Of a stretch of DNA of 64,000 bases, positions 511 through 61,100 are shown in pieces. The translations under genes were made by a program, and so were the position numbers. The notes beneath the pieces were generated by a model. It was not told the origin of the DNA and ran no database searches. It saw only the letters and a list, made by a program, of their open reading frames with translations. Within the stretch, counting starts at the first letter, position 1. Each line of letters begins with the position of its first letter. The stretch comes from Arenicola marina (Eukaryota > Annelida > Polychaeta > Arenicolidae), in the NCBI GenBank assembly GCA_964019135.1, contig OZ025249.1, forward strand, positions 33,803,759 to 33,867,758, read 5' to 3'.

Positions 511-3500
511 GGCAAGCTTGGTTGATGACGTCACCGCCATCCTGGGCGAGCAACGTGAAATTATGGCTGACGTAGATGTCGTCTTCCGAGCTGCCGATCT
601 CTACCAGCTCCTCCCGATTAACCCACTCTCCGACCCCAACGGCGAAGACTGAGATCCCTCGTGCTCTGGCTCGCGAGGCCAAGGGGGCCACCTCCGCCCC
701 ACGGTGCGACGAACGACCATTCGTGATGAGGATAATGACGTTTTGAGCGTCCGGGCGGTCGCCCCCGTCCTCGGTGAAGACCTCCTCCATGGCCAGTTCG
801 AGGGCGCCCGCTATGTTGGTGAAGTCGCCGTGGCTTGTCAAGTCGCCTATAGCCAAGCGCACATCGGCCGCCGTGGTGTACTTGTCGAAGTTAAACTCCA
901 CAGCTGCCGTCGAGCTATAAATTTAAGGAATGTACTTACATGCGCCATCCTAGATTTTTTACATTTTAGAATCAAGACTAAAAGTATCTAAAAATTTAGG
1001 ATGCATATGAAACATATTTCAGGATTTATATTCAAGACAGAATGTACTTATTTGACATGGCGAAGAGGTTGGCAATACAACAAATTACGGCATATATTGC
1101 TTTAAGGAATGAAGTAAAACAGTGTTTGAGTCCTCATCGGCCCAGAGTCCTCATCGGCCCAGAGTCCTCATCGGCCCAGAGTCCTCATCGGCCCAGAGTC
1201 CTCATCGGCCCAGAGTCCTCATCGGCTACTAACCTGAACGTGATGACGGAGACGCGGGAGTCGTTCACTCCGACCTTGACGGAATCTACAATATTCTTGG
1301 CCAGATCCAGAAGAATAGCCCAATTTTCAGGATCTTCCTCTACTTCGCTTCCGGAAACGTCCAACAGGATCGCCACATCCGCCCGCAATCCGGCGCACGC
1401 TACGGGAGACCAGAAGCCAGGAAACACCCTAAAGCCACAGGCCATTGCTTGGCGGAATCTGAATAGGCGTTTGAACCCACCTTTGTGCACACATGGCACG
1501 AGTCGGTCCGGTCCGGAGTTGGATAGATTCATGAAGGGGTTTTTCGAGTCACCTTTTTGTACACATGGGATAATCAGGACCAATTAAGTAGCCTCCATAA
1601 AGGACGTGATTTAATGGATTCACTTTATTCACCCCAATGAGCAATGTATGGTTCAAACAACCTGTGACAAATTCCTTTGAGGCCCATGGGAGGCTCACCC
1701 GTGGGCCGGACCATGTAATCATATTATGCTTACAATGATATTAATCCTGGGACATCGGTTAAATAAGTTAACCACATACAAATCCTAACGGATTTAATGG
1801 CGACTAGGAATACATTTGTCCATTACGATAACGGTTGCAATGCGACAGAATCTATAATGGCCTACAATGACCGATGCACTCGATGACAATATGTATGATA
1901 GGTGAATAAATATAGCTGTTTGCAATGACCCGCCCCCATCCGCCCCCCCCCACCCTTTTCACACACACACACACACACACATCCCCCATAGTCATCCACT
2001 CACCGACAGCCAATTGGCAGGTTTCGTAGACAATGCCAACCGCCTTGGTGCCCAGAGCGGCGAAGCTGGGTACGAAATGGATGCTGGACGGCGGGCCGGG
2101 TAACGGATTTAATGGCGACTAGGAATACATTTGTCCATTACCATAACGGTTGCAATGCGACAGAATCTATAATGGCCTACAATGACCGATGCACTCGATG
2201 ACAATATGTATGATAGGTGAATAAATATAGCTGTTTGCAATGACCCGCCCCCATCCGCGCCCCCCCCCCCCCACCCTTTTCACACACACACACACACACA
2301 CATCCCCCATAGTCATCCACTCACCGACAGCCAATTGGCAGGTTTCGTAGACAATGCCAACCGCCTTGGTGCCCAGAGCGGCGAAGCTGGGTACGAAATG
2401 GATGCTGGACGGCGGGCCGGGTGCGATGAGCATCAGTTCCGCCTCATCCACGGCGTCCGTGATGCCGACGACGATGAAGCGGATGCCATGTTGTCTCGCC
2501 AGCCCGGCGGCGCTGGCAATCTCCGACTGTCGCACGTTCACCTGGCCGTCGATCATCACTATGGCAACGTTGTCCACATCCGGTCTGTCGCCGTTGCTGG
2601 GCTGGAAGACGTCGCTGACGAGCTGCTCCATCACGCTGGCCATGTTGGTGGTTGACCCCATGTATTCTATGTTGTCGATGGGGCTCATAAGGGCAGACTC
2701 GGACCTGCAATGAGGAGAATCGTCACACGGCGGAATCATGTGGCGAATTCATATCATGATGGCGATGCTATACGGCATTATATCTATCTTGATTTTAAAA
2801 GTGGGAAAAAAATGATATTTCAGGATGTAATTAAAAATAGCCACACCGTTATGTCCAACACAAGATGCTCGAATCGGCAAAAGGTGCCATTTATCAGCAA
2901 AATACCCCTTCAATTATTAACGACTAAATATTTGTATTTATGCAATAAGGTCCCACAAATTTGTCGGAAAGAAACTGCTGCATAGACAGCTTTGAGACTC
3001 GTGACAGTACAGTATAAGGTGAAGAAATTGAGTATCGCCACAAAGCCAAGGCGTGCGACCAGCTTTTATATAGCTACATTATATGTCCCATGGTGGGACT
3101 AGATAAAATTAAACTACCAAGGCTATTCGTGGTCTTGGAATGGGCAGGACTTGATAAATATTCTTAAATTAAAACATATCCTGATATAGATTTTAGGTTA
3201 ACTTGATGCTTGACCTGACAAGTTTGATAAATAAAATAGCGCCACAAGTTTCTCGTAAGGTGTTTTTCGTATATATATGTCCACCCCCATAAGTAAATAA
3301 ACTCACCCACAACTGATCCTTTCTTATAAGAGACTACCATGTAGTAGTAGCCACTGCAGGAGAGACCAACTACACCAAAGTGATGCCAAATGCATTAATA
3401 AACCCTTACGTGTAGTTGTTGAGATGGAATTGAGTGCGAGCGACATTGCTGTAGGAGATGACAGACACTTGCGCCGCTTCGGGGCCCACGTTAATGTCGG

Positions 3501-6500
3501 CGACTATCGCCTTGACGAAGGCCAACACTTTGGGCCAGTTCAGTGGGTCGTTGGTCTGGACGCTGCCACTCGTGTCGACGGCAATGGCGAGGTCCACTGG
3601 TCTTCTACACACTGAAGAAACCAGGATTTAATTCGAACTAGAACACCCCCGAGTCTTAGATAAATATTGGTACATATTTCAAGAACAGTTAAATGAAAAG
3701 CAGCACTTTTTAATGACCGGGTAGGCATACATAATTTACGGTGCATGGTTTTATACTTATACTCATATACTCGTCTTAACATTATCGTTTTCCATGAATA
3801 TGAATATATATATGGCCTAATTCTATCATGCAACACGCAATAGATACCTTTAACATATATATTCTTGCATGCGAGGACTGCACGAGTCCTTATCTGCAGC
3901 ATGGATATATACCCGGGCAGATGAAAAGATCCATTAGATAGTCTTAGTTAAGCCTTTATTATCTAGTAATTCACCCTCAGTCGTGTGGCGTAAGTGCGTT
4001 TGCAGTTCAGTTCAGTTTACCTGCGGATGGAGAGCACACGCTGGAGAAGAGCGTGCTGACGCGATCCGCCAGGTCAAAGAAGTTACCGAGGAACATGTAA
4101 TCGTGCGAAGCGGAGGCCAACGCCTGTAGCTCCGTGGAGTTGACCCTGCTGGAGACACCGACCGTGAGCAGGCGGACGCCGTTCAGTTTGGCGGCGGTGG
4201 CGAGCGGCTCGACGTCGGCGTGGCGGTGCGTGGGGCGTCCGTCCGTCACCAGGACGCCCACGTTACGCGCGTGCGGGCGGTCGCCATACGGCGCGCTGAA
4301 GATTTCTTCGTTCATCAGCTGCAGGGCGTCCGCCATGTTGGTTCCGCCGCCTGTGTAGGGCAGAGCATCGGCGGCCGCCTTCATGGAGGCGACGTCCGTG
4401 TAGCTGTTGAGGTGCCACTGGACGACTCCGGTCGACCTGCCGGGGGAGTTGGGAGGAAAGGTTGGCTGGTTTGAGGCGGATTTGGACTATATATGCAAAA
4501 GTCCTAACGCGTCAATGGAGCGGGAGAACTGAGGTAGCCATGGGATTTTTTTAGACATTAACATTCTGATTTTCTGCGCTATGGCTGGCTTAGCAGAGCC
4601 TTATTGACAACGTCAAACGTGCTAACCGTCGACCATTCAGTGGACCCCCGATACCAATATACGATTAAATAGGGTGTAGGTGGGATTGGGGGGGGGGGGG
4701 GGTCAGTAACGGAAGCAAATAAGATAAGGGGAGGGACATCATTGGATTATGTAGCATAGGATCGACATCAACAGACCATGCAACGTGCAAACATTAGTGG
4801 AAGGAAAATGTCTATCTCTAGGTCATCTAACAGTGACAGATGTACTCACTCAAGATAGACCATCTAACAATGACATATGTACTCATTCAAGAAAGACCAT
4901 CTAACAGTGACAGATGTACTCACTCAAGATAGACCATCTAACAGTGAGCGATATACTCACTCAAGATAGACCATCTAACAGTGACAGATGTGCTCACTCA
5001 AGATAGACCATCTAACAGTGGCAGATGTGCTCACTCAAGATAGACCATCTAACAATGACAGATGTAGTGCTCCACGATAAAGTATCTCTAATAATGACAG
5101 ATGCACTCGCTCACGATAGGTCATCTAACAGTGACAGATGTACTCACTCAAGATACATCATCTAACAATGGCCGATGTACTGCTCCACAAAAGAGCATCT
5201 AACAATGACAGATGTATTCGCCCACGACAAGGTATGTAGCTAGGACAGATGTACTCGCCCGTGATAGAGCCGACAATAGCGGATCCACTCACCCATAGAG
5301 AACAACAGCGATGTGCGTGCCCCCCGGGCTGACAGCGGCGAAATCGATAGTGTTCTTCACGAATTCCTTTACCCTGTCCCAGTTATCGCGGTCGTCAAAG
5401 TTGATGCTGCCAGAGGCATCTAGCAGCAGAGCCATGTCTAACACATCTGCGCAATCTGAAATAATATTGTATAAAGTGCACTCACCTTATCACGTCTTAA
5501 CATTTCACGTCGAGACGCGGGTCTCCCGGATGGGAGGGGGGGGGCGGATGGGGGGGGGGAGGGCAGGCAGCATTTGGTAGACGGCGGGTGGGTTCAATAT
5601 GGTGGGGGGGGGGGGGATAAATAAACACCTCTCATAAAAATGTGGCGTTCCGGATCCCGTGAGACTGCTTTACAGACGATATCTGTCAAATAAGACAGGA
5701 ACGTGGTGGGATGAACCGCAGTAATCAGACGCTGGATCCACTGTTGTGGCTAAGCTTTGGTTCTTTAGTCCATAAAACAATTAAATATTTTAGCTATATA
5801 ATTCAAATGTTCTTCTTTTAGTAAAATAATGACCAAGATCTCCAGAAATCAAGGGTATGTAATTATATTGTACTGACCACTGACAGCTGTCGGCCGGGGC
5901 GCGGTGGTAGTGGGAGTTGTCACTGGGGTGGTCGTGGTCGTCACGATGAGGATATCATCGATAGCGATGTCGGCTTGGTTGTCGAAGCCCCCATTTCCCC
6001 CTTTGGCGGCGGTGATCTTCACCCCCGCGGTACCGGATGGCAGAGTAAAGGTGGCCTCCGTCCAGGCTGGTCCCACTGGAAGGCATCAATTAACAGCCAG
6101 GATATTAAAGTGAATATTTAACAAATCTATACAGACAAAGCAATCGTATTAGCTTGTGGCCGGGACCTATCCCCATAGATGCGATAGACCGGCCCAGGGC
6201 GCATCCTCTCGCCATGTTCGTTCAAACCAGCCTGGTGTAGACGCTGTGCTGACTGGTTTGGAACCAGGCAGTCTGTGTTGACTGGCCTGGAACCAGGCAA
6301 TCTGTGCCGACTGGTTTGGAACCAGGCAGCACCATCAAAATTAGCTGTCAGTAAGCTTTTCACACAAAAAAACTGCAACTAAATGGCACACATTATGTGC
6401 GGACACTGGAAAGATCAATTCAGGGTTCTGTTCAAATGCATAGAAGAACGATTACATTTAATGAAGCAATCATTCGAATACCAGTTTGTAAATGTAAGTA

Positions 6501-10902: not shown

Positions 10903-12116
10903 AACTCTGTCCGCGGCACTGCTACTTATAACAAAACATCGCGAAGCACACAAACTGATGACGTTTACCACTAAGTTGAAAACTTATGGTAAATTGATAT
11001 CATGAGCAAGGAATGGAATGTTGGTGTTTTAGGCCACTTTTGTGCACATACAGGCTAAATTGGGCCAAGGAACCTCCCGAGACGATGAAGGATGAAGGAA
11101 TGAAACATGCCCCAGATTAGGTGCCCGAGCCCGGATTCGAACCCAGGACCTATTGATCTGCGGTCTAGTGCGCTAACCACTACAACTCTGTCCGCGGCAC
11201 TGCTACTTATAACAAAACATCGCGAAGCACACAAACTGATACACATACAGGCTAAATTGGGCCAAGGAACCTCCCGAGACGATGAAGGATGAAGGAATGA
11301 AACATGCCCCAGATTAGGTGCCCGAGCCCGGATTCGAACCCAGGACCTATTGATCTGCGGTCTAGTGCGCTAACCACTACAACTCTGTCCGCGGCACTGC
11401 TACTTATAACAAAACATCGCGAAGCACACAAACTGATGACTTTTGTGCACATACAGGCTAAATTGGGCCAAGGAACCTCCCGAGACGATGAAGGATGAAG
11501 GAATGAAACATGCCCCAGATTAGGTGCCCGAGCCCGGATTCGAACATGCCCCAGATTAGGTGCCCGAGCCCGGATTCGAACCCAGGACCTATTGATCTGC
11601 GGTCTAGTGCGCTAACCACTACAACTCTGTCCGCGGCACTGCTACTTATAACAAAACATCGCGAAGCACACAAACTGATACACATACAGGCTAAATTGGG
11701 CCAAGGAACCTCCCGAGACGATGAAGGATGAAGGAATGAAACATGCCCCAGATTAGGTGCCCGAGCCCGGATTCGAACCCAGGACCTATTGATCTGCGGT
11801 CTAGTGCGCTAACCACTACAACTCTGTCCGCGGCACTGCTACTTATAACAAAACATCGCGAAGCACACAAACTGATGACGTTTACCACTAAGTTGAAAAC
11901 TTATGGTAAATTGATATCATGAGCAAGGAATGGAATGTTGGTGTTTTAGGCCACTTTTGTGCACATACAGGCTAAATTGGGCCAAGGAACCTCCCGAGAC
12001 GATGAAGGATGAAGGAATGAAACATGCCCCAGATTAGGTGCCCGAGCCCGGATTCGAACCCAGGACCTATTGATCTGCGGTCTAGTGCGCTAACCACTAC
12101 ACCAGGGAGGCCCCCC
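10903..12116. repeat. Tandem array of a SINE/MITE chimeric unit
   Basis: A unit made of MITE sequence (aactctgtccgcggcactgc onward) joined to a minus-oriented SINE recurs at 10903, 11184, 11381, 11623 and 11820, giving steps of 281, 197, 242 and 197 bp. Internal junctions fuse SINE 'taaccactaca' to MITE 'actctgtcc'. Short units lack the stretch between aaactgat and acacatacagg. The 242-bp unit has an extra ~36-bp internal duplication. Units are almost identical, so expansion was recent. Confidence 0.9.
11929..12116 (-). mobile_element. tRNA-derived SINE (family A), complete copy with target-site duplication
   Basis: 188 bp. In the minus sense it has box A (TGGTGTAGTGGTTAGCGC), box B (GGTTCGAATCC), then a non-tRNA body ending in acattccatt, with no poly-A. 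It is flanked by tcatgagcaagg at 11917-11928 and 12117-12128. It matches the plus-strand copy at 51027-51216 over its whole length. Four further partial copies lie within 11012-11820. Confidence 0.92.
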
Positions 12117-12420
12117 TCATGAGCAAGGCCAAGAGACTCTATTTGGCAGTCTGACCTGGGTGGAGTATAGACAGAATAAATCTTGAACGATTCAAGGACT
12201 GATTCGTACGTGTATTTTGACCTCTTTAGTTTTGGCGGGAAAGAGCTCGATAATCAACTTTAATTATTTTGTTGCCGCGACGCGATTGGTTTATTTTTAA
12301 TCACGAATCTTTATTGACTGAAAGTCAAGGTATATGATATATTTATATACATATATCATAAAACGAGCGTTCTCGAACTCATTTCATGTCATTGGATTAA
12401 GCACGGACCGTTGATGTTAG

Positions 12421-14132: not shown

Positions 14133-14790
14133 TCAGAGACCGCTCTGGGCGCTGGAGTAGGACTCCGGTCGCGTACCATGGCTCCGTGCGCTGGATGGAC
14201 TATGGTTCCGGTCGCAGGCTATCGCTTTGCGCGCCGGGCTATGGTTCCGGGCGCTAGAATATGGTTCCGGACGCGAGCTATTGCTCGGGGCGCTGGACTA
14301 TGGTTCCGGTCGCGAACTATGGCTCAGTGCGCTAGACTGTGGCTCAGTGCGCTAGACTATGGCTCCAGGAGCGGGCTATGACTCAGTGCGCCAGCCTATG
14401 GCTCAGTGCGCCAGACTATGGCTCAGTGCGCTAGACTATGACTCAGTGCTCTAGACTATGGCTCAGTGCGCTAGACTATGGCTCAGTGCGCTAGACTATG
14501 GCTCAGTGCGCTAGACTATGGCTCCAGGAGCGGGCTATGACTCAGTGCGCCAGCCTATGGCTCAGTGCGCCAGACTATGGCTCAGTGCGCTAGATTATGA
14601 CTCAGTGCTCTAGACTATGGCTCAGTGCGCTAGACTATGGCTCAGTGCGCTAGACTATGGCTCAGTGCGCTAGACTATGGCTCCAGGAGCGGGCTATGAC
14701 TCCGGTCGGGAGCTATGGCTCCGGTCTATGACTCTGGGCGCGGGTTCGGGCTATGGCTCTGGGTGCTGGACTATGGCTCTGAGTGCCGTT
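14133..14790. repeat. 20-bp minisatellite with a 159-bp higher-order period
   Basis: The monomer is about gctagactatggctcagtgc. The distinctive variant ggctccaggagcgggctatg recurs at 14361, 14520 and 14679, giving a 159-bp higher-order unit of eight monomers. The left edge (14133-14340) and right edge (14700-14790) are more diverged (tccggtcg, tctgggcgc variants). Stretches stay open in plus frames only because the repeat is stop-poor; I do not regard these as genes. Confidence 0.9.
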
Positions 14791-27655: not shown

Positions 27656-30600
27656 TCAATGCAGATCGTCCAAGTCTAGTGTGTCACCAATACTGCTTAG
27701 GTCATCTGTTGTCAAGTTGAGGTCCGTGAGTAAAATGTCTTCATCGCCTAGGAAGTAAAAAAAGTAATAAGCGTTCATCTATGATCGATCACGGATAGTG
27801 GACGAACGATGACAATTCACCACTGAAGGCGTTTTTTTTATGATTATTCTATTACAGGAGCGGTATGTGTTTCAAAACTCAGAAGCCTTATTTATTTATA
27901 CAAGAATTGTTAAAACACAATATCGTCCAGGGAACCATTTATAACATTGCGCTGCAACATTTAACTTACACGCCATAAGTCTATACATCAAAGGCGAAAG
28001 ATTCGATTGCATATTATGCCACGATACACCTACCAGTAGGTGTGAGAATTGGACGCTCCTTGGCTTTAGTGGAGAATTCAAGGTCGCATGTTTTGAGGTC
28101 ATCGAGGTCGGTGCTTTCACTGAGTTCAAAGTCACTGGTGTTGGGACTGAACAGGTCCGCTGTCGCTCGTGGCATATACGGTTTGGTCCCGAATCGGGTT
28201 GATTTCGGAGAAGACACTTTGCGCTCTGGAAATGCATACTTTTAATATACTAATGCTAGGTCGACAAAAATAAGATGATGAACACACCGGTACATTGCGA
28301 TATATATCGGTCAGCAAACAGGACCCTTTTCACGCCACGATTTAATTTACTTAAGCAGGGTTTACTTTGACATAACTGTACATAACACATCTTATTGAGA
28401 CCTATATTATTAAGGAAACGTGATAAAAAAAAAACAATAGATACAAGATCAAAGATGTAAAAAAAAGATATCTAGGAGTTTCTTAGAGATACTTACCAGT
28501 GATCGGCGAATTAGTTTTCAATTTATTTTCAATGTCACCAAGCTTAGCTTTCATGGATTGATAGCTGTCTCTGCAATGCAAGAAAACAAATCAAAAGCGG
28601 ACAACTAATAGTCACCCGTCAAGCAGAAGTTCACCCGGCGTTGTTATCTTGTAAATCCGCTTTGCAGCTAGGTTGAAATAAATGTAATTTTGGCTAAACC
28701 GGCAACCTCCCGTACATCGCTTATACTTTGTCAAGACCTCAGCACTCTAAAAATACCGAACTTATACTTTATCGAAACATCACCACGCTGAATATCGAAC
28801 TTACATTGTCGAAACCCCACCACTCTGAAGACCGAACTTACCGGTACTTTCTCGAAACCTCACCACTCTGAAGAGCGAACTTACTTTGTCGAAACCTCAC
28901 CACTCTAAAGACCGACATTAATTTGTCGAAACCTCACCACTCTAAAGACCGACATTAATTTGTCGAAACCTCACCACTCTGAAGAAGATACTCTGCCGCC
29001 GATTTACCATGGAGTTTTTTGTATCATAGATTTTGTGTATTTTATCATGGACTTTTTTATATCATAGATTTTGTTTAAGACGCCGAAAAATAACATTGTA
29101 AATAGATAGCGTTTGTTCAAGCCTTAAATTAACTTACTTGAGCAGGTCAAGTTCTTTTCCTGAAACAGTCAGCTCTCCAGATCTGGACGGTTCCAATACT
29201 TGACTATTGGCCACACATCGAACCTCCTGCAATAAACGTAGATTGTTACTGAGTTTACCCAAGAGTTTCTATTGTTCATATCTAGCGTACATAGTGCAGG
29301 TTGAGTTAAGCCCCAATGTTCATGCCATTACGGTTTCTACGCTGGAGTGATATATGCTGTGCATGTATATACCGTAACATACATAAAAAATGTAACGCGT
29401 ATGTCTATATAATGGTAACTCAAATCGCATCCTCTATTGTGCTCATTTCTAGGAGCTAGGACAACTTTTGGTTCAATCATATCTTCAACTTAATTTACAG
29501 TCGCTAATATAAATGAACACATCCCACGTACGTTTTCGAGTCGGCCTTGCCTCCTTTCAGATTCTCGATTTTCTAATGTTACAGAAGTCAACTGTGATTC
29601 CATTCTTCCTGCAAAATGAAAAATCAGAATATAAACCAAGCGTATATGTGACAATATCACATATATATATATAATCAACCAGAATTCTAAAATCATTAGG
29701 TACTGGTGCGCCTGATATTGATAGTTATTTGGTTGTAGAGACATCAGACTTTACTAATTTACGACGATCAATGTTCACACAATTTAAAACTCATATGAGC
29801 GCGCAGTTTCAATTTGAGATACAAAAAGTCTAGAGTACTTAGAGACTTACCAAGTCTGCCTTTGAAAACGTCAAGTTCTCGTCTTAATGAATCACATTCG
29901 TCTTGAGAGTATTTTCTCCTGAAAACATAATCTAACGTCACTATCTAGCCAGGTACACATACTGAGTCAAAGGTGCCCTAAATAATTATAGATCTACCCA
30001 TGTAGACTTATTCTTGAAAAGGACTGACTGAAAACATTAAAGGGCCACCTCATCAATGCAAGGCTATCTAGTTACTTCCAGTCACTAACAAGTATTATAT
30101 CATATTATGAACAGAGCGCTACATGATTGCTAAGTAATTTCATGTTGGCCAATTTCTTTACAAAGCTGGAGAAAATTCACAAAAGAAAAAGCAGAACACA
30201 CTCCACCGAATAGGGCAGTGTCGGGTGATCTCGAGCCAGCTAAAAAGCGAGTATAACGGCAGGCCTAACAACATACATCTGTTTACTATTGGCAACAATT
30301 TCAAATGATTACTGTAATTCACGAGGAAAGTGGAGTTGTATTTGCGTTGCTTTGAAGCGCCATATTTGTTCGGCAAAGGAGAGCCTACATTAAGCGGTAT
30401 TTCAATCTTCACAGAATACCTGTTACCTTAACAAAGAAACCACTTTAAAATATCAGTAAGATCTTCAAACGTACGTTGTAGGAGTGGGTGTACTATAGAG
30501 TGGCTTGTAGTACCCACAATAACAATGGTTATGGTTACCAGATTACACTCTCACTACCTATAAGTTTGTGAGTCATTTTGCAATACGTTAACAATTAGCA

Positions 30601-33459: not shown

Positions 33460-34183
33460 CGGTCTCGTCTCACTGCATAAATATCATGGCCCTTCTGTCG
33501 TTCCACTGTTCCATTAAAGCTAGAAATTTGAATCGGAGAAGCTGGGTAGCAAGAGTATGCGACCGGAAGTACCGTTGTCTGGGTAAAATATGAATCTGTC
33601 AAATAGGGTAAGACAACCAGCTGACCAGCTAAGGCAACAGGAAAACCAATCTGCCTTGAAAACTTAAAGTGAATGAAATCTTTGTAAAATCAAAAGACGC
33701 CGCTATTACCTAATACTTGTAGCAGACAATAGTTGAAACAAACTGAGATGACTAGGCTATTTACAATTTGCAGATGAAAACTGCTTTCCTACGTAATGAA
33801 CGTAGTGAACGTCGCAGCCGTTGAAACGTCCTTCAATATATTTGTCACATATTATTCTCTATCCTCAAATTACAGATTTTATAACCATGATAACCAGATT
33901 CTGCTGCTCCTGTCTATACTGAAAGTCTAAACTAGAATGTCTGTATCTATTTTGAATGTCTTTTTTAAACAAAGATATAGCTTACTTCTATTTGAAAGCC
34001 TGCAAACTCTTTGCATGCCACTTTATAGAGAAGATTATACACTGTTGAGAATTTGGCTAAAATCAAAAGTCCTGCAATGCAATTAAAATATCTTGATATT
34101 GTGATGCCTATGGCTATGATACATATACTTATTGTCTGTTTAGATCTGTCCTTTGATTCCAATGTTGCTGAGGAGCATCTGCA

Positions 34184-35077
34184 ATGGACAGCTTGCGGGA
34201 GGCATTGACTATGGCCAATTTGCCCTACCTTCTCAGCCTCATACGTGCAGGAGTAGACATCAACATTCCTCTGGTCATAGAGGATGACAGAACCTGCACC
34301 ATCCGCGAAGAAACACCACTGACCATGTCTGCGCGACTGGGTAATGTGGATGTGGTGAGAATGCTGATCCATAACAAAGCCGACCTCGATGTGGGGACAA
34401 CAGGAACTGGTATGACAGCCCTTCACTGGGCCTGTGCCAGGGGCAATGTGGACATTGTGAGAATCCTTGTCAGCCATCGTGCCAATGTGGACAAGGCCGA
34501 TTACATCTACGAAACACCTTTGTTAGAAGCCATCTGCAGTGGACGGATTGAAATTGTCAAGATGCTTGTGACATGTGGCGCTGACATGAACCGTCCAGTG
34601 AACAGTGCTCAGGATTCGAGCCTATTCTTCGCATTGTACACCAGAAATTTGGATGTGGCTCGCTTTTTGATCGCTGCAGGAGCAGATGTGAATAATATCA
34701 ACAGCTTTGGGGAAGACTTACTGTGGTCCCTCCCTTACGTATCCCAACACGCACAAGTTATTCGCAATACATACGAAATGCTCATAGAAGCTGGATGTAA
34801 ACCAACTAATATTCACTTGCAAAAAATTCGCAAAGTGGGAGATCTTCTCCCAAATGACCACTTTTTACGGAGTACCATAACCACCATTGAACGATCTCGG
34901 TTGCAACCAAAGAGACTGCAGCAAATAGCCAGGCTTCGAATCCGAACACATTTGCTGGCTCTCACCCACGGCAGATGCGTTTTATATAAAATTTATCAAA
35001 TGCCCTTGCCGAGTTGCTTGCAAAAGTTCCTCGCATTGGGTATCGAATTGGATCAGTTTTGCTTAGAACAAACATGA
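34184..35077 (+). CDS. Ankyrin-repeat and SOCS-box protein (ASB-type), intronless
   Basis: A single open frame of 297 aa. About five ankyrin repeats cover residues ~2-172, with TPLTMSARLGNVDVVRMLI, TALHWACARGNVDIVRILV, TPLLEAICSGRIEIVKMLV and LDVARFLIAAGADVN. A C-terminal SOCS box at ~244-285 has the BC-box helix LQQIARLRIRTHLL and the Cul5-box-like MPLPSCLQKFL. ASB proteins recruit Elongin B/C and Cullin-5 as substrate receptors of an E3 ubiquitin ligase; that role is inferred from the family, and the substrate is unknown. The start is supported by an in-frame TGA 15 bases upstream. A tttag acceptor-like site at 34137-34141 may mark a 5' UTR intron. AATAAA at 35102-35107 follows the stop closely. 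Most animal ASB genes have coding introns, so this may be an expressed retrocopy or a family-specific loss. Confidence 0.92.
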   Translation: MDSLREALTMANLPYLLSLIRAGVDINIPLVIEDDRTCTIREETPLTMSARLGNVDVVRMLIHNKADLDVGTTGTGMTALHWACARGNVDIVRILVSHRANVDKADYIYETPLLEAICSGRIEIVKMLVTCGADMNRPVNSAQDSSLFFALYTRNLDVARFLIAAGADVNNINSFGEDLLWSLPYVSQHAQVIRNTYEMLIEAGCKPTNIHLQKIRKVGDLLPNDHFLRSTITTIERSRLQPKRLQQIARLRIRTHLLALTHGRCVLYKIYQMPLPSCLQKFLALGIELDQFCLEQT

Positions 35078-48223: not shown

Positions 48224-48500
48224 GTCCAGTGTCGATTTTTGAACATGTTCAGTGTCGAATGTCGATTTTTCAACATGTTCAGTGTCGAATGTCGATTTTT
48301 CAACATGTTCAGTGTCGAATGTCGATTTTTCACGATGTTCCGTGTCGCTTTATGGCTTTGTTCAGTGTCGTTTTTTCAAAAATCTGTGTCGATGTCGCTT
48401 TTTCAGATCTTCAGTGTCCTAATTTGGGGGTCAATGTCGAATGTCGATTTTTTAAAGTAGCCTGTGTCGCGTGTCGCCATTTACCCCGTCCACACCCCTA
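48224..48500. repeat. Interspersed repeat (GTCGATTTTT family), copy 2 with internal 30-bp tandem units
   Basis: Same order of blocks as 42411-42633, but its 5' part carries tandem units gttcagtgtcgaatgtcgat + ttttcaacat starting at 48247, 48277 and 48307 (30-bp period). Reading frames through it are a by-product of the 30-bp unit, which is a multiple of three. Confidence 0.75.
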
Positions 48501-50406: not shown

Positions 50407-51026
50407 CGTCAACGTCACTCGTCGATGTCACCGACGTCACTCGTCGATGTCACCAACGTCACGCATCGATGTCACCGACGTCACTCGTCGATGTCACCAA
50501 CGTCACTCGTCGATGTCACCAACGTCACTCGTCGATGTCACCAACGTCACTCGTCGATGTCAACAACGTCACTCGTCGATGTCACCAATGTCAATGGTCG
50601 TTGTCACCGACGTCACGTGTCGATGTCATCGACGTCACGCGTCGATGTCACCAACGTCACTCGTCGATGTCACCAATGTCAATGGTCGATGTCACCGACG
50701 TCCCGCGTCGATGTCACGTGTCGATGCCACGCGTCGATGTCACCGACGTCACGCGTCGATGTCACCATCGTCACTCGTCGATGTCACCGACGTCACGCGT
50801 CGATGTCACCATCGTCACTCGTCGATGTTGCCGACGTCCCGCGTCGATGTTACGTGTCAATGCCACGCGTCGATGTCACCGACGTCACGCGTCGATGTCA
50901 CCATCGTCACTCGTCGATGTCACCAATGTCAATGGTCGATGTCACCGACGTCACGCGTCGATGTTGCCGACGTCCCGCGTCGATGTTACGTGTCAATGCC
51001 ACGCGTCGATGTCACCAACATCGTCG
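50407..51026. repeat. 22-bp minisatellite, open in all three plus frames
   Basis: About 28 copies of gtcactcgtcgatgtcaccaa+c with variants (caccgacgtcacgcgtcgat, caccatcgtcac, caatgtcaatggtcgat). 22 is not a multiple of three, so every frame reads the same ~22-residue pattern; frames of 209 to 334 codons result without being genes. Many units hold GACGTCAC, a CRE-like half-palindrome. The array resumes for 14 bases after the SINE. Confidence 0.92.
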
Positions 51027-51216
51027 GGGGGGGCCTCCCTGGTGTAGTGGTTAGCGCACTAGACCGCAGATCAATAGGTCCTGGGTTCGAATCCGGGCTC
51101 GGGCACCTAATCTGGGGCATGTTTCATTCCTTCATCCTTCATCGTCTCGGGAGGTTCCTTGGCCCAATTTAGCCTGTATGTGCACAAAAGTGGCCTAAAA
51201 CACCAACATTCCATTC
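51027..51216 (+). mobile_element. tRNA-derived SINE (family A), inserted in the 22-bp array
   Basis: 190 bp. Box A TGGTGTAGTGGTTAGCGC at 51040 onward, box B GGTTCGAATCC at ~51084, body with gcatgtttcattccttcatc, end acattccattc. An exact 14-bp target-site duplication caccaacatcgtcg lies at 51013-51026 and 51217-51230. Almost identical to the copy at 11929-12116. Confidence 0.94.
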
Positions 51217-52186: not shown

Positions 52187-55100
52187 TAAATGGCTATGGC
52201 ATGAACATATATCCCACCTAGACTCGTGGTGGGTGGCTATAGACCTACATCCCACCTGGATGGGTGGCTATAGACGTACATCCCACTTGGATGGGTGGCT
52301 ATGGACGTACATCCCACCTAGATCCTGGGTGGCGAGGATCTATTTTTAAAAACAACTAAGGGTGAATTGATGTACAGAGCACATACAAATTGGCTCAACT
52401 GCCTAGAAGAAAATGACCGACTTGACACATATAGAAAGTATAAAAGAACCTTGACAACAGAACCGTATATATTTGCTATAAAGGAAAGCTATCTTCGAAA
52501 AATCCTGGCCCAATTTCGATGTTCCACACACCCACTAAACATAGAGAAAGGCAGACATTTAGGAATCCCATGGGAGGAAAGACTGTGTATGTATTGTAAA
52601 AATAATGGTGAGCCTACAGTGCACAATAAACTCATTATTATTATTATTATTATTATTATATCCCACCTAGACCCTGGGTGGGTGGCTATAGACGTACATC
52701 CCACCTAGACCGTGGGTGGGTTGTTATAGACGTACATTCCACCTAGACCCTGGGTGGGTGGCTATAGACGTACATCCCACCTAGACCCTGGATGGGTGGC
52801 TATAGACGTATATCCCACCTAGACCCTGGGTGGGTGGCTATAGACGTACATTCCACCTAGACCCTGGGTGGGTGGCTATAGACGTACATCCCACCTAGAC
52901 CCTGGATGGGTGGCTATAGACGTACATCCCACCTAGACCCTGGATGGGTGGCTATAGATGTACATCCCACCTAGACTCGTGGTGGGAGGCTATAGACGTA
53001 CATTCCACCTAGACCCTGGATGGGTGGCTATAGACGTACATCCCATCTAGACCCTGGATGGGTGGCTATAGACGTACATCCCACCTAGACCCTGGATGGG
53101 TGGCTATAGACGTACATTTCACCTAGACCCTGGGTGGGTGGCTATAGACGTACATCCCACCTAGACCCTGGGTGGGTGGCTATAGACGTACATCCCACCT
53201 AGACCCTGGATGGGTGGCTATAAACGTACATCCCACCTAGATCCTGGGTGGGTGGTCATAGACGTACATCCCACCTAGACCCTGGATGGGTGGCTACAGA
53301 CGTACATCCCACCTAGACACTGGATGGGTGGCTTTAGACGTACATCCCACCTAGACCCTGGATGGGTGGCTATAGACGTACATCCCACCTAGACCCTGGA
53401 TGGGTGGCTATAGACGTACATTTCACCTAGACCCTGGGTGGGTGGCTATAGACGTACATCCCACCTAGACCCTGGGTGGGTGGCTATAGACGTACATCCC
53501 ACCTAGACCCTGGATGGGTGGCTATAGACGTACATCCCACCTAGATCCTGGGTGGGTGGTCATAGACGTACATCCCACCTAGACCCTGGATGGGTGGCTA
53601 CAGACGTACATCCCACCTAGACACTGGATGGGTGGCTTTAGACGTACATCCCACCTAGACCCTGGATGGGTGGCTATAGACGTACATCCCACCTAGACCC
53701 TGGGTGGGTGGCTGTAGACGTACATCCCACCTAGACCCTGGATGGGTGGCTATAGACGTACATCCCACCTAGACTCTGGATGGGTGGCTATAGACGTACA
53801 TCCCACCTAGACCCTGGATGGGTGGCTATAGACGTACATCCCACCTAGACCCTGGGTGGGTGGCTATAGACGTACATTCCACCTAGACCCTGGATGGGTG
53901 GCTATAGACGTACATCTCACCTAGACCCTGGATGGGTGGCTATAGACGTACATCCCATCTAGACCCTGGATGGGTGGCTATAGACGTACATCCCACCTAG
54001 ACCCTGGATGGGTGGCTATAGACGTACATTTCACCTAGACCCTGGGTGGGTGGCTATAGACGTACATCCCACCTAGATCCTGGGTGGGTGGTCATAGACG
54101 TACATCCCACCTAGACACTGGGTGGGTGGCTATAGACGTACATCCCACCTAGACACTGGATGGGTGGCTTTAGACGTACATCCCACCTAGACCCTGGGTG
54201 GGTGGCTATAGACGTACATCCCACCTAGACACTGGATGGGTGGCTTTAGACGTACATCCCACCTAGACCCTGGATGGGTGGCTGTAGACGTACATCCCAC
54301 CTAGACCCTGGGTGGGTGGCTGTAGATGTACATCCCACCTAGACCCTGGGTGGGTGGCTATAGACGTACATCCCACCTAGACCCTGGATGGGTGGCTATA
54401 GACGTACATCCCACCTAGACCCTGGATGGGTGGCTATAGACGTACATCCCACCTAGACTCGTGGTGGGTGGCTATAGACGTACATTCCACCTAGACCCTG
54501 GATGGGTGGCTATAGACGTACATCCCATCTAGACCCTGGATGGGTGGCTATAGACGTACATCCCACCTAGACCCTGGATGGGTGGCTATAGACGTACATT
54601 TCACCTAGACCCTGGGTGGGTGGCTATAGACGTACATCCCACCTAGACCCTGGGTGGGTGGCTATAGACGTACATCCCACCTAGACCCTGGATGGGTGGC
54701 TATAGACGTACATCCCACCTAGATCCTGGGTGGGTGGTCATAGACGTACATCCCACCTAGACACTGGGTGGGTGGCTATAGACGTACATCCCACCTAGAC
54801 ACTGGATGGGTGGCTTTAGACGTACATCCCACCTAGACCCTGGGTGGGTGGCTATAGACGTACATCCCACCTAGACACTGGATGGGTGGCTTTAGACGTA
54901 CATCCCACCTAGACCCTGGATGGGTGGCTATAGACGTACATCCCACCTAGACCCTGGGTGGGTGGCTGTAGATGTACATCCCACCTAGACCCTGGATGGG
55001 TGGCTATAGACGTACATCCCACCTAGACCCTGGATGGGTGGCTATAGACGTACATCCCACCTAGACCCTGGATGGGTGGCTATAGACGTACATCCCACCT

Positions 55101-58100
55101 AGACCCTGGGTGGGTGGCTATAGACGTACATTCCACCTAGACCCTGGATGGGTGGCTATAGACGTACATCTCACCTAGACCCTGGATGGGTGGCTATAGA
55201 CGTACATCCCATTTAGACCCTGGATGGGTGGCTATAGACGTACATCCCACCTACACCCTGGATGGGTGGCTATAGACGTACATTTCACCTAGACCCTGGG
55301 TGGGTGGCTATAGACGTACATCCCACCTAGATCCTGGGTGGGTGGTCATAGACGTACATCCCACCTAGACACTGGGTGGGTGGCTATAGACGTACATCCC
55401 ACCTAGACACTGGATGGGTGGCTTTAGACGTACATCCCACCTAGACACTGGATGGGTGGCTTTATTCGTACATCCCACCTAGACCCTGGGTGGGTGGCTA
55501 TAGACGTACATCCCACCTAGACACTGGATGGGTGGCTTTAGACGTACATCCCACCTAGACCCTGGATGGGTGGCTATAGACGTACATCCCACCTAGACCC
55601 TGGGTGGGTGGCTGTAGACGTACATCCCACCTAGACCCTGGATGGGTGGCTATAGACGTACATCCCACCTAGACCCTGGATGGGTGGCTATAGACGTACA
55701 TCCCACCTAGACCCTGGATGGGTGGCTATAGACGTACATCCCACCTAGACCCTGGGTGGGTGGCTATAGACGTACATTCCACCTAGACCCTGGATGGGTG
55801 GCTATAGACGTACATCTCACCTAGACCCTGGATGGGTGGCTATAGACGTACATCCCATCTAGACCCTGGATGGGTGGCTATAGACGTACATCCCACCTGA
55901 GACCTTGGATGGGTGGCTATAGACGTACATTTCACCTAGACCCTGGGTGGGTGGCTATAGACGTACATCCCACCTAGATCCTGGGTGGGTGGTCATAGAC
56001 GTACATCCCACCTAGACACTGGGTGGGTGGCTATAGACGTACATCCCACCTAGACACTGGATGGGTGGCTTTAGACGTACATCCCACCTAGACACTGGAT
56101 GGGTGGCTTTAGACGTACATCCCACCTAGACCCTGGGTGGGTGGCTATAGACGTACATCCCACCTAGACACTGGATGGGTGGCTTTAGACGTACATCCCA
56201 CCTAGACCCTGGATAGGTGGCTATAGACGTACATCCCACCTAGACCCTGGGTGGGTGGCTGTAGACGTACATCCCACCTAGACCCTGGATGGGTGGCTAT
56301 AGACGTACATCCCACCTAGACCCTGGATGGGTGGCTATAGACGTACATCCCACCTAGACCCTGGATGGGTGGCTATAGACGTACATCCCACCTAGACCCT
56401 GGGTGGGTGGCTATAGACGTACATTCCACCTAGACCCTGGATGGGTGGCTATAGACGTACATCTCACCTAGACCCTGGATGGGTGGCTATAGACGTACAT
56501 CTCACCTAGACCCTGGATGGGTGGCTATAGACGTACATCCCATCTAGACCCTGGATGGGTGGCTATAGACGTACATCCCACCTAGACCCTGGATGGGTGG
56601 CTATAGACGTACATTTCACCTAGACCCTGGGTGGGTGGCTATAGACGTACATCCCACCTAGACCCTGGGTGGGTGGCTATAGACGTACATCCCACCTAGA
56701 CCCTGGATGGGTGGCTATAGACGTACATCCCACCTAGATCCTGGGTGGGTGGTCATAGACGTACATCCCACCTAGACACTGGGTGGGGGGCTATAGACGT
56801 ACATCCCACCTAGACACTGGATGGGTGGCTTTAGACGTACATCCCACCTAGACACTGGATGGGTGGCTTTAGACGTACATCCCACCTAGACCCTGGGTGG
56901 GTGGCTATAGACGTACATCCCACCTAGACACTGGATGGGTGGCTTTAGACGTACATCCCACCTAGACCCTGGATGGGTGGCTATAGACGTACATCCCACC
57001 TAGACCCTGGGTGGGTGGCTGTAGACGTACATCCCACCTAGACCCTGGATGGGTGGCTATAGACGTACATCCCACCTAGACCCTGGATGGGTGGCTATAG
57101 ACGTACATCCCACCTAGACCCTGGATGGGTGGCTATAGACGTACATCCCACCTAGACCCTGGGTGGGTGGCTATAGACGTACATTCCACCTAGACCCTGG
57201 ATGGGTGGCTATAGACGTACATCCCATCTAGACCCTGGATGGGTGGCTATAGACGTACATCCCACCTAGACCCTGGATGGGTGGCTATAGACGTACATCT
57301 CACCTAGACCCTGGATGGGTGGCTATAGACGTACATCCCATCTAGACCCTGGATGGGTGGCTATAGACGTACATCCCACCTAGACCCTGGATGGGTGGCT
57401 ATAGACGTACATTTCACCTAGACCCTGGGTGGGTGGCTATAGACGTACATCCCACCTAGATCCTGGGTGGGTGGTCATAGACGTACATCCCACCTAGACA
57501 CTGGGTGGGTGGCTATAGACGTACATCCCACCTAGACACTGGATGGGTGGCTTTAGACGTACATCCCACCTAGACACTGGATGGGTGGCTTTAGACGTAC
57601 ATCCCACCTAGACCCTGGGTGGGTGGCTATAGACGTACATCCCACCTAGACACTGGATGGGTGGCTTTAGACGTACATCCCACCTAGACCCTGGATAGGT
57701 GGCTATAGACGTACATCCCACCTAGACCCTGGGTGGGTGGCTGTAGACGTACATCCCACCTAGACCCTGGATGGGTGGCTATAGACGTACATCCCACCTA
57801 GACCCTGGATGGGTGGCTATAGACGTACATCCCACCTAGACCCTGGATGGGTGGCTATAGACGTACATCCCACCTAGACCCTGGGTGGGTGGCTATAGAC
57901 GTACATTCCACCTAGACCCTGGATGGGTGGCTATAGACGTACATCTCACCTAGACCCTGGATGGGTGGCTATAGACGTACATCCCATCTAGACCCTGGAT
58001 GGGTGGCTATAGACGTACATCCCACCTAGACCCTGGATGGGTGGCTATAGACGTACATTTCACCTAGACCCTGGGTGGGTGGCTATAGACGTACATCCCA

Positions 58101-61100
58101 CCTAGACCCTGGGTGGGTGGCTATAGACGTACATCCCACCTAGACCCTGGATGGGTGGCTATAGACGTACATCCCACCTAGATCCTGGGTGGGTGGTCAT
58201 AGACGTACATCCCACCTAGACACTGGGTGGGGGGCTATAGACGTACATCCCACCTAGACACTGGATAGGTGGCTTTAGACGTACATCCCACCTAGACACT
58301 GGATGGGTGGCTTTAGACGTACATCCCACCTAGACCCTGGGTGGGTGGCTATAGACGTACATCCCACCTAGACACTGGATGGGTGGCTTTAGACGTACAT
58401 CCCACCTAGACCCTGGATGGGTGGCTATAGACGTACATCCCACCTAGACCCTGGGTGGGTGGCTGTAGACGTACATCCCACCTAGACCCTGGATGGGTGG
58501 CTATAGACGTACATCCCACCTAGACCCTGGATGGGTGGCTATAGACGTACATCCCACCTAGACCCTGGATGGGTGGCTATAGACGTACATCCCACCTAGA
58601 CCCTGGGTGGGTGGCTATAGACGTACATTCCACCTAGACCCTGGATGGGTGGCTATAGACGTACATCTCACCTAGACCCTGGATGGGTGGCTATAGACGT
58701 ACATCCCATCTAGACCCTGGATGGGTGGCTATAGACGTACATCCCACCTAGACCCTGGATGGGTGGCTATAGACGTACATTTCACTTAGACCCTGGGTGG
58801 GTGGCTATAGACGTACATCCCACCTAGATCCTGGGTGGGTGGTCATAGACGTACATCCCACCTAGACACTGGGTGGGTGGCTATAGACGTACATCCCACC
58901 TAGACACTGGATGGGTGGCTTTAGACGTACATCCCACCTAGACACTGGATGGGTGGCTTTAGACGTACATCCCACCTAGACCCTGGGTGGGTGGCTATAG
59001 ACGTACATCCCACCTAGACACTGGATGGGTGGCTTTAGACGTACATCCCACCTAGACCCTGGATAGGTGGCTATAGACGTACATCCCACCTAGACCCTGG
59101 GTGGGTGGCTGTAGACGTACATCCCACCTAGACCCTGGATGGGTGGCTATAGACGTACATCCCACCTAGACCCTGGATGGGTGGCTATAGACGTACATCC
59201 CACCTAGACCCTGGATGGGTGGCTATAGACGTACATCCCACCTAGACCCTGGGTGGGTGGCTATAGACGTACATTCCACCTAGACCCTGGATGGGTGGCT
59301 ATAGACGTACATCTCACCTAGACCCTGGATGGGTGGCTATAGACGTACATCCCATCTAGACCCTGGATGGGTGGCTATAGACGTACATCCCACCTAGACC
59401 CTGGATGGGTGGCTATAGACGTACATTTCACCTAGACCCTGGGTGGGTGGCTATAGACGTACATCCCACCTAGACCCTGGGTGGGTGGCTATAGACGTAC
59501 ATCCCACCTAGACCCTGGATGGGTGGCTATAGACGTACATCCCACCTAGATCCTGGGTGGGTGGTCATAGACGTACATCCCACCTAGACACTGGGTGGGG
59601 GGCTATAGACGTACATCCCACCTAGACACTGGATGGGTGGCTTTAGACGTACATCCCATCTAGACCCTGGGTGGGTGGCTATAGACGTACATCCCACCTA
59701 GACACTGGATGGGTGGCTTTAGACGTACATCCCACCTAGACCCTGGATGGGTGGCTGTAGACGTACATCCCACCTAGACCCTGGGTGGGTGGCTGTAGAC
59801 GTACATCCCACCTAGACCCTGGGTGGGTGGCTATAGACGTACATCCCACCTAGACCCTGGATGGGTGGCTGTAGACGTACATCCCACCTAGACCCTGGAT
59901 GGGTGGCTATAGACGTACATCCCACCTAGACACTGGATGGGTGGCTATAGACGTACATCCCACCTAGACCGTGGGTGGGTTGTTATAGACGTACATCCCA
60001 CCTAGACGCTGGGTGGGTGGCTATAGACGTACATCCGACCTAGACCCTGGGTGGGTGCTTATAGACGTACATCCCACCTAGACCGTGGGTGGGTGGCTAT
60101 AGACGTACATCCCACCTAGACCCTGGATGGGTGGCTATAGACGTACATTCCACCTAGACCGTGGGTGGGTGGCTATAGACGTACATCCCACCTAGACCCT
60201 GGATGGGTGGCTATAGACGTTCATCCCACCTAGACCCTGGGTGGGTGGCCATAGACGTACATCCGACCTAGACCCTGGTTGGGTGGTTATAGACGTACAT
60301 CCCACCTAGACCGTGGGTGGGTGGCTATAGACGTACATCCCACCTAGACGCTGGGTGGGTGGCTATAGTCGTACATCCCACCTAGATCCTGGGTGGGTGG
60401 TCATAGACGTACATCCCACCTAGACACTGGGTGGGTGGCTATAGACGTACATCCCACCTAGACACTGGATGGGTGGCTTTAGACGTACATCCCACCTAGA
60501 CCCTGGATGGGTGGCTATAGACGTACATCCCACCTAGACACTGGATGGGTGGCTATAGACGTACATCCCACCTAGACCCTGGATGGGTGGCTATAGACGT
60601 ACATCCCACCTAGACCCTGGATGGGTGGCTATAGACGTACATCCCACCTATACCCTGGATGGGTGGCTATAGACGTACATCCGACCTAGTCCCTGGGTGG
60701 GTGGTTATAGACGTACATCCCACCTAGACCCTGGATGGGTGGCTATAGACGTACATCCCACCTGGGTGGGTGGCTATAGACGTACATCCCACCTAGACGC
60801 TGGGTGGGTGGCTATAGACGTACATCCCACCTAGATCCTGGGTGGGTGGTCATAGACGTACATCCCACCTAGACACTGGGTGGGTGGCTATAGACGTACA
60901 TCCCACCTAGACACTGGATGGGTGGCTTTAGACGTACATCCCACCTAGACCCTGGATGGGTGGCTATAGACGTATATCGCCCCTAGACCCAAGGGTGGGT
61001 GGCTATAGACGTACATCCCACCTAGACACTGGGTAGGTGGCTATAGACGTACATCCCACCTAGACCGTGGGTGGGTTTTTATAGACGTACATCCCACCTA

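What the first reader, a model, noticed from the sequence alone, without database searches (positions are those of the whole stretch)
4824..5300. Minisatellite whose units copy the adjacent 5' splice site
The 37-bp array in the intron after the first vWA-1 exon ends exactly at the exon border, and the border itself aligns with the repeat unit: real junction TCTATGG|GTGAGT, repeat TCTATCTTGAGTGAGT. The intron therefore offers up to a dozen decoy GTGAGT donors in series. Seen directly. I recall amphioxus 'mirage' minisatellites having a similar intron-start location; if this is one, the array may arise by slippage or break repair seeded at the donor. Use of the decoys would shift the frame or add stops.
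Basis: partly seen in the sequence, partly recalled or inferred. Interest (0 to 1): 0.75.

Follow-up and report, generated by a model that had tools for sequence, protein, structure and literature searches.

The report
Repeat array near annelid splice site
A worm gene has a tandem repeat just inside an intron that only doubtfully copies the splice site, but the same gene and genome hold clear cases where tandem repeats duplicate whole splice junctions, a pattern reported before in the lancelet.

Summary
The 37-bp array is real (minus strand, intron of a MAM/vWA gene) but does not end at the exon border: recognisable units stop at 5267, 25 nt inside the intron (donor GG|GTGAGT at 5292). The junction does not demonstrably copy the unit: 0.3 bits, E 0.74; 18 of 128 other GTGAGT sites align as well. 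The array holds seven GTGAG[T/C] decoys, all weaker than the true donor; using one reads into an immediate TGA.

Mitochondrial gene order is annelid, not amphioxus. Yet junction-copying arrays ('mirages') occur in this genome: five at donors, one with 31 decoys as strong as the true site, and one at an acceptor. In the window gene the vWA-2 exon end plus donor is duplicated in tandem (2422-2102, 2101-1787; 314 of 315 aligned bases identical): a nascent mirage.

Array starts are no denser at donors than deeper in introns (ratio 1.0, bootstrap 0.3-2.3; 74 donors), which fits random tandem duplication tolerated at exon borders. Splicing and population variation could not be tested.

The parts
5293..5455 (-). 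vWA-1 first-half exon, ends ...CTC TAT GG|; 5' start by eye from ...tatttcag|ATTGC
   Evidence: ORF and sequence; Pfam VWA match of the joined halves E 2e-36
5287..5292 (-). authentic 5' splice site GTGAGT, donor score 8.2, phase 2; read-through gives an immediate in-frame TGA
5268..5292 (-). 25 nt of intron between donor and first recognisable unit; similarity to the unit at chance level
4824..5267 (-). 37-bp minisatellite; cleanest units at 4824-5044 and one at about 5122-5156, the others, most of them towards the donor, degenerate
   Evidence: TRF; profile scan
4844..5147 (-). decoy donors: GTGAGT at 5147, 4960, 4923, 4849 (score 5.1); GTGAGC at 5114 (3.8), 5034 and 4997 (3.5)
4437..5292 (-). 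vWA-1 internal intron, 856 nt, acceptor cggcag|GTCGAC
1787..2422 (-). two-copy tandem duplication across the vWA-2 donor (nascent mirage): copy 1 2422-2102, copy 2 2101-1787; 314 of 315 aligned bases identical plus a 6-bp gap; 98 nt of exon end copied
2319..2324 (-). vWA-2 donor in reading frame, GTCG|GTGAGT, score 8.3
1998..2003 (-). identical decoy copy of the vWA-2 donor, score 8.3
1128..1226 (-). 17-bp array (5.8 copies) starting 8 nt after the vWA-3 internal donor (CAG|GTTAGT at 1233); no junction copy detected

Best explanation
The array at 4824-5267 is an intronic minisatellite whose recognisable part begins 25 nt inside the intron of a MAM/multi-vWA gene of an annelid. It is one product of a genome in which tandem duplications arise often and, in the introns sampled, at roughly even density. 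When a duplication happens to span an exon/intron border, the outermost copy keeps the coding exon and splice site intact, so the extra copies are tolerated as intron. Later slippage or unequal exchange expands them into arrays with serial decoy splice sites ('mirages'). Shown: the array, its distance from the donor, lack of demonstrable copying, mirages elsewhere, a two-copy duplication across the vWA-2 donor, and no detected excess of array starts at donors. Inferred: the neutral mechanism, expansion by slippage or exchange, and that splicing uses the donor that keeps the reading frame.
For: Junction profile score 0.3 bits (E 0.74) against 46-72 bits at junctions of L067, L101, L127 and L070/L069. 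Array-start rate within -40..+25 of 74 donors: ratio 1.01 to the rate at 26-319, bootstrap 0.28-2.31. Junction 24-mers recur downstream (17 or more of 24) in 3 of 74 donors, against 83 of 627 intronic control 24-mers. vWA-2 duplication: 314 of 315 aligned bases identical. An acceptor can be duplicated too (L011), and in L110, and for the last few bases in L099, a coding end with its stop codon lies in an array (by eye), so the 5' splice site is not special. The seven window decoys are all weaker than the true donor.
Against: The exon-proximal units are mostly the degenerate ones and the donor is close to register (34 vs 37 nt), so a decayed copy of the junction could be undetectable. TCTAT on the exon side does match the unit (9 of 128 GTGAGT sites match as well). 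Against the sparser background at 60-499 nt, 5 starts were seen where 3.1 were expected (p 0.24). Few events (5 near, 19 far), so about 2.3-fold enrichment is not excluded. The sample is mostly vWA genes.
Confidence: 0.65

Rival explanations
1. Old decayed mirage: the array was seeded by duplication of its own vWA-1 junction, and the copies next to the exon have decayed beyond recognition.
For: TCTAT plus GTGAGT shared with the unit; only 2 of 79 other donors align as well; unit scores tend to fall towards the exon; mirages are real in this genome; a fresh junction duplication sits at the vWA-2 donor.
Against: E 0.74 in the profile test; 18 of 128 GTGAGT sites align as well; intron side no better than random (58 of 128).
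Confidence: 0.28
2. Donors are birth hotspots: transcription- or splicing-linked breaks at 5' splice sites seed minisatellites.
For: 3 of 74 sampled donors (plus L017, doubtful) lie at the head of junction-copying arrays, and 2 more were found in 8 stretches chosen by intron position. Each of the three vWA domains of the window gene has a repeat at or near a donor.
Against: Rate ratio about 1; 5 starts against 3.1 expected from a wider background, p 0.24; junction recurrence not above intron controls; unit donor motifs not clearly stronger on the sense strand (Wilcoxon p 0.14).
Confidence: 0.08
3. Functional array: serial decoy donors regulate splicing or expression of the gene.
For: Decoy use would give an immediate stop, which could tune output.
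Against: Decoys are weaker than the donor; conservation could not be tested; similar arrays start throughout the sampled introns.
Confidence: 0.04
4. Assembly artefact, especially the near-identical vWA-2 duplication.
For: 314 of 315 aligned bases identical between the two copies.
Against: The 37-bp array has diverged units; copies of the duplication differ by 6 bp in a G run; donor mirages lie on C2, C4, C12 and C20.
Confidence: 0.04

Closest known systems
Amphioxus 'mirage' minisatellites (Adh3, globins BflGb6 and BflGb9: PMC3087553 passages; troponin C named in PMC3902484)
   Same: In this genome (L101, L108, L067, L070/L069; L127 from the last exon base on; acceptor L011): tandem repeats that include an exon/intron border, at 5' or 3' splice sites, with decoy sites. 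The vWA-2 two-copy duplication fits the birth step.
   Different: Annelid, not cephalochordate. The flagged array itself lies inside the intron and fails the copy test. Splicing and instability untested here.
PGBD5 tandem repeats in lancelet (PMC3902484, one passage read)
   Different: Different gene and phylum; the passage gives a triplication for the 108-bp repeat, against up to 35 copies here.
Variable internal tandem repeats at exon-intron boundaries of human duplicated genes (PMC2812944, abstract and passages read)
   Same: Minisatellite expansions at exon-intron boundaries that can create splice sites.
   Different: Recent primate paralogs; there linked to new introns with transcript support.
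Intronic minisatellites of earthworm metallothionein genes (PMC12783039, passages read)
   Same: Annelid genes with large tandem arrays in introns.
   Different: In the passages read, no copying of splice junctions is described; monomers average about 180 bp.

Membership tests
mirage minisatellite (flagged array 4824-5267) | repeat unit contains a copy of the adjacent exon/intron border | tested here: not met
   0.3 bits, E 0.74; 18 of 128 GTGAGT sites align as well
mirage minisatellite (flagged array 4824-5267) | array lies next to or across the splice border | tested here: inconclusive
   profile ends 25 nt inside the intron
mirage minisatellite (L101, L108, L067, L070/L069) | repeat unit contains a copy of the adjacent exon/intron border | tested here: met
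   profile hit across the junction of 58, 46 and 72 bits in L101, L067 and L070/L069; in L108 two hits (41 and 74 bits) meet at it; ungapped copies with exon part 91-97% and intron part 96-99% identical
mirage minisatellite (L127) | repeat unit contains a copy of the adjacent exon/intron border | tested here: inconclusive
   72-bit hit starting at the last base of the exon; the donor is copied but the exon sequence before it is not
mirage minisatellite (vWA-2 donor, 1787-2422) | exon/intron border duplicated in tandem | tested here: met
   two copies, 314 of 315 aligned bases identical; only two copies, so a duplication rather than yet a minisatellite
mirage minisatellite | normal splicing in spite of decoys | not testable with these tools
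   no RNA data
mirage minisatellite | length instability between alleles or tissues | not testable with these tools
   one assembly
origin in amphioxus | cephalochordate genome | tested here: not met
   mitochondrial contig C762 has its protein genes on one strand in the annelid order (compared with PMC7889199 and PMC4866719, passages)

The most novel reading that the evidence does not exclude
Junction-copying minisatellites are a standing, genome-wide class of intron in this annelid: 3 of 74 sampled donors (about 4%) sit at the head of an array of decoys as strong as the true site, and in L067, outside that sample, 31 such decoys follow in series. They arise by neutral tandem duplication across borders, with a birth stage caught at the vWA-2 donor. 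If so, mirages are not a lancelet oddity but arise in any minisatellite-rich genome, and give ready-made natural tests of how the spliceosome picks among identical sites and of intron gain or boundary sliding.
Probability: 0.55. Interest if true: 0.7.

Novelty: new member of a known kind. Interest (0 to 1): 0.5.

Why it matters
Identical donors in series, each with the same flanking exon sequence, remove local sequence as a cue, so these introns test directly whether position, transcription order or frame surveillance decides which site is used. They also show the raw material of the tandem-duplication model of intron gain. Finding them in an annelid extends a pattern that the papers I could read describe in lancelets, and gives a rough estimate of frequency, with no donor hotspot detected.

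Tried and rejected
Amphioxus identity: a GFP family search found nothing, but its control rang nowhere either, so it says nothing; mitochondrial gene order decided it.

Sense-strand enrichment of donor motifs in array units: 13 of 53 non-redundant units score 5 or more on the sense strand, 9 antisense, 7.1 expected from shuffles; Wilcoxon p 0.14. Not significant.

Idea that mirages survive only where the intron starts with an in-frame stop: 17 of 71 phase-1 donors have one, among them L101, L108 and L127, but L017 is not among them and L070/L069 has none at once. Dropped.

L017 and L003 as mirages: L017 only 5.4 bits, E 0.05, GT-rich; L003's array starts 19 nt after the donor with no junction copy. 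The vWA-3 array does not reach its junction either.

Acceptors: among the 30 vWA loci, no listed array reaches the vWA acceptor (the nearest end 40-45 nt before the domain match); L011's acceptor mirage belongs to a neighbouring EGF-like exon (named by eye).

Rows dropped: of 90 donors, 7 near-duplicates and 9 weak ones (score under 3.5) were left out of the 74. One of the weak ones, L110, has an array over its coding end, so dropping it lowers the near count. L089, L099 and L107 stayed in although their exons seem to end in stop codons, so their 'donors' are probably misassigned. Of the 30 sushi loci L036-L065, 18 come from one cluster; none was used as a donor; they entered only the GTGAGT pool. 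That pool also holds sites from array-bearing loci.

Full report
WHAT IS THERE. The gene is on the minus strand and encodes a MAM domain followed by three vWA domains. The joined pieces of vWA-1, vWA-3 and the MAM domain match Pfam at E 2e-36, 2e-34 and 6e-22, and the two vWA-2 pieces match VWA at 6e-13 and 6e-17. The vWA-1 domain is split by an 856-nt intron, donor ...CTCTATGG|GTGAGTGG at 5292, next exon from 4436. TRF finds a 37-bp array at 4824-5216, with longer-period rows to 5253 and 5270. A profile of six clean units finds units up to 5267-5244 and, in a 20-kb scan, none at the donor. So the recognisable array starts 25 nt inside the intron. Most of its degenerate units lie on the exon side, with one clean unit among them.

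DOES THE UNIT COPY THE DONOR? Three tests. Local alignment of the doubled unit to the 41-bp junction: 95 of 4000 random windows score as well with lax scoring, 370 of 4000 with strict; 3 of 21 and 13 of 21 GTGAGT sites. Alignment anchored on the donor GT: 2 of 79 other donors and 18 of 128 GTGAGT sites do as well; the part after GTGAGT 58 of 128, the exon part 9 of 128. A profile built from units at least 40 nt away scores the junction 0.3 bits, E 0.74. The same profile test on other introns of the genome gives 58 bits at L101, 72 at L127 and 46 at L067, 41 and 74 bits on the two sides of the L108 junction, and 72 at L070/L069. The test can therefore see a copy; here it does not. The spacing from donor to first unit (34 nt) is near register, which by itself would happen about one time in five by chance (inference).

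DECOYS. Seven GTGAG[T/C] sites lie in the array; the best score 5.1 against 8.2 for the true donor, since the unit has A, not G, before the GT (generic metazoan weights that I wrote in from general knowledge). Reading past the true donor gives LYG and at once a stop, so any decoy use adds a premature stop.

WHICH ORGANISM. The assembly has 867 Mb in 762 contigs. Its mitochondrial contig carries, on one strand, nad4L-nad4, a stretch with tRNA-Val where the rRNAs belong, nad1-nad3-nad2-cox1-cox2, a stretch where atp8 and cox3 belong, nad6-cob-atp6, a noncoding stretch, and nad5. nad6 is below its Pfam cut-off and nad2 is named from a family it shares with nad4 and nad5; atp8, cox3 and the rRNAs were placed by position only. 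This fits the order that PMC7889199 and PMC4866719 describe for annelids (passages; the full order string is recalled). The genome is thus an annelid of unknown species, not amphioxus.

MIRAGES ELSEWHERE IN THE GENOME. Exons were picked by protein domain, not by repeats: 30 vWA loci, 40 further vWA donors, 10 fn3 and 10 sushi donors, and 8 stretches with an intron near the same vWA position. Donor mirages: L101 (period about 70, exact 24/24 junction copies), L108 (period 72/60, 42 nt of exon copied), L067 (32-nt unit of 23 exon + 9 intron bases, 33 copies at 75% or better, 97-99% identical) and L070/L069 (61-nt unit, 9 ungapped copies of 45 exon + 11 intron bases). L127 (59 nt) copies the donor from the last exon base on, but not the exon before it. 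Decoys scoring at least as high as the donor: 31 in L067, 7 in L101, 6 in L108, 5 in L127, 7 in L070/L069. The 'true' donor in each is the one that keeps the reading frame; no RNA was seen. In L011 a 77-nt unit repeats an acceptor with the start of an EGF-like exon...TATATTcccag|ATATCAACGAGTGC..., running into that exon. In L110 the repeated stretch is the end of a coding exon with its stop codon, and L099's array starts at the last coding bases (by eye).

A BIRTH STAGE IN THE WINDOW GENE. The vWA-2 exon end with its donor is duplicated in tandem: 2422-2102 and 2101-1787, 314 of 315 aligned bases identical and a 6-bp difference in a G run; both donors score 8.3. The reading frame continues past the first donor and meets a stop before the second copy (ORF ends at 2167). 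The vWA-3 internal donor has a 17-bp array starting 8 nt into the intron with no junction copy.

IS THE DONOR A HOTSPOT? Of 90 donors, 7 near-duplicates and 9 weak calls were dropped, leaving 74. Array starts: 5 within -40..+25 (1.04 per kb), 7 at 100-200 and 7 at 200-300 (0.95 per kb each), then 0.32 and 0 per kb at 300-400 and 400-500, where fragments end and earlier arrays already cover the intron. Against the whole 60-500 background 3.1 were expected near donors and 5 seen, p 0.24. With exposure limited to bases not already in an array and the far zone at 26-319 nt, the rate ratio is 1.01 (bootstrap 0.28-2.31) at TRF score 50, and 1.15 and 1.14 at scores 40 and 70. Junction 24-mers recur downstream (17 of 24 or better) in 3 of 74, control intronic 24-mers in 83 of 627; the controls are correlated and counted several times within arrays, so the Fisher value (0.02, fewer at junctions) is only descriptive. 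Hence no sign of a hotspot, with limited power.

MECHANISM. Most likely tandem duplications arise at an even density; one that spans a border is harmless to the protein because the outermost copy keeps exon and donor; slippage or unequal exchange then expands it. The duplication and the arrays are shown; neutrality and the expansion step are inferred. Splice choice is untested; [quoted passage not shown]

NOVELTY. Searches of the held library: 'mirage minisatellite' 0 papers; minisatellite+amphioxus+intron 3; mirage+minisatellite+splice 3; minisatellite+amphioxus+Adh 3; minisatellite+'amphioxus genome' 2; annelid+minisatellite+intron 2, one read in passages and one seen in the listing only; two wider searches (17 papers; 3 papers), of which PMC2812944 and PMC3045353 were read in passages and the rest, apart from those named above, seen only as listings. 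No passage that I read describes splice-junction-copying arrays in annelids; the library lacks most subscription papers. The flagged array is an ordinary intronic minisatellite unless shown otherwise; the pattern seen in the sampled introns is a known kind in a new phylum.

Noticed in passing
1787-2422: Near-identical two-copy tandem duplication spanning the vWA-2 exon end and donor; folded into the explanation.
   Followed up: yes
52660-63258: 10.6-kb array of a 38-bp unit, about 279 copies at 93% match; an array with a similar 31-bp unit at 52230-52323.
   Followed up: no
L011, 640-1100 nt after the vWA donor: Acceptor mirage: 77-nt unit repeating a 3' splice site and the first bases of an EGF-like exon; four of the five decoy acceptors read TTCCCAG, the true one TTGACAG.
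   Followed up: partly
L110 and L099: Arrays that take in the end of a vWA coding exon with its stop codon (in L099 only its last few bases), so border copying is not limited to splice sites.
   Followed up: partly
11045-12253 and about 51055-51172: Repeated copies of a tRNA-like (box B-like, recalled) element with a 197-bp tandem period, perhaps a SINE.
   Followed up: no
34172-35074 (+): Open frame with ankyrin repeats and a SOCS box (Pfam).
   Followed up: no
14239-14683, 28724-28985, 48230-48347, 50410-51019: Further minisatellites (20-37 bp units); the window is rich in them.
   Followed up: no
C3:36.07-36.33 Mb (L024, L025, L029) and C12:38.81 Mb (L027): vWA copies with G-rich arrays ending about 40 nt before the vWA domain match, close to the acceptor.
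   Followed up: no
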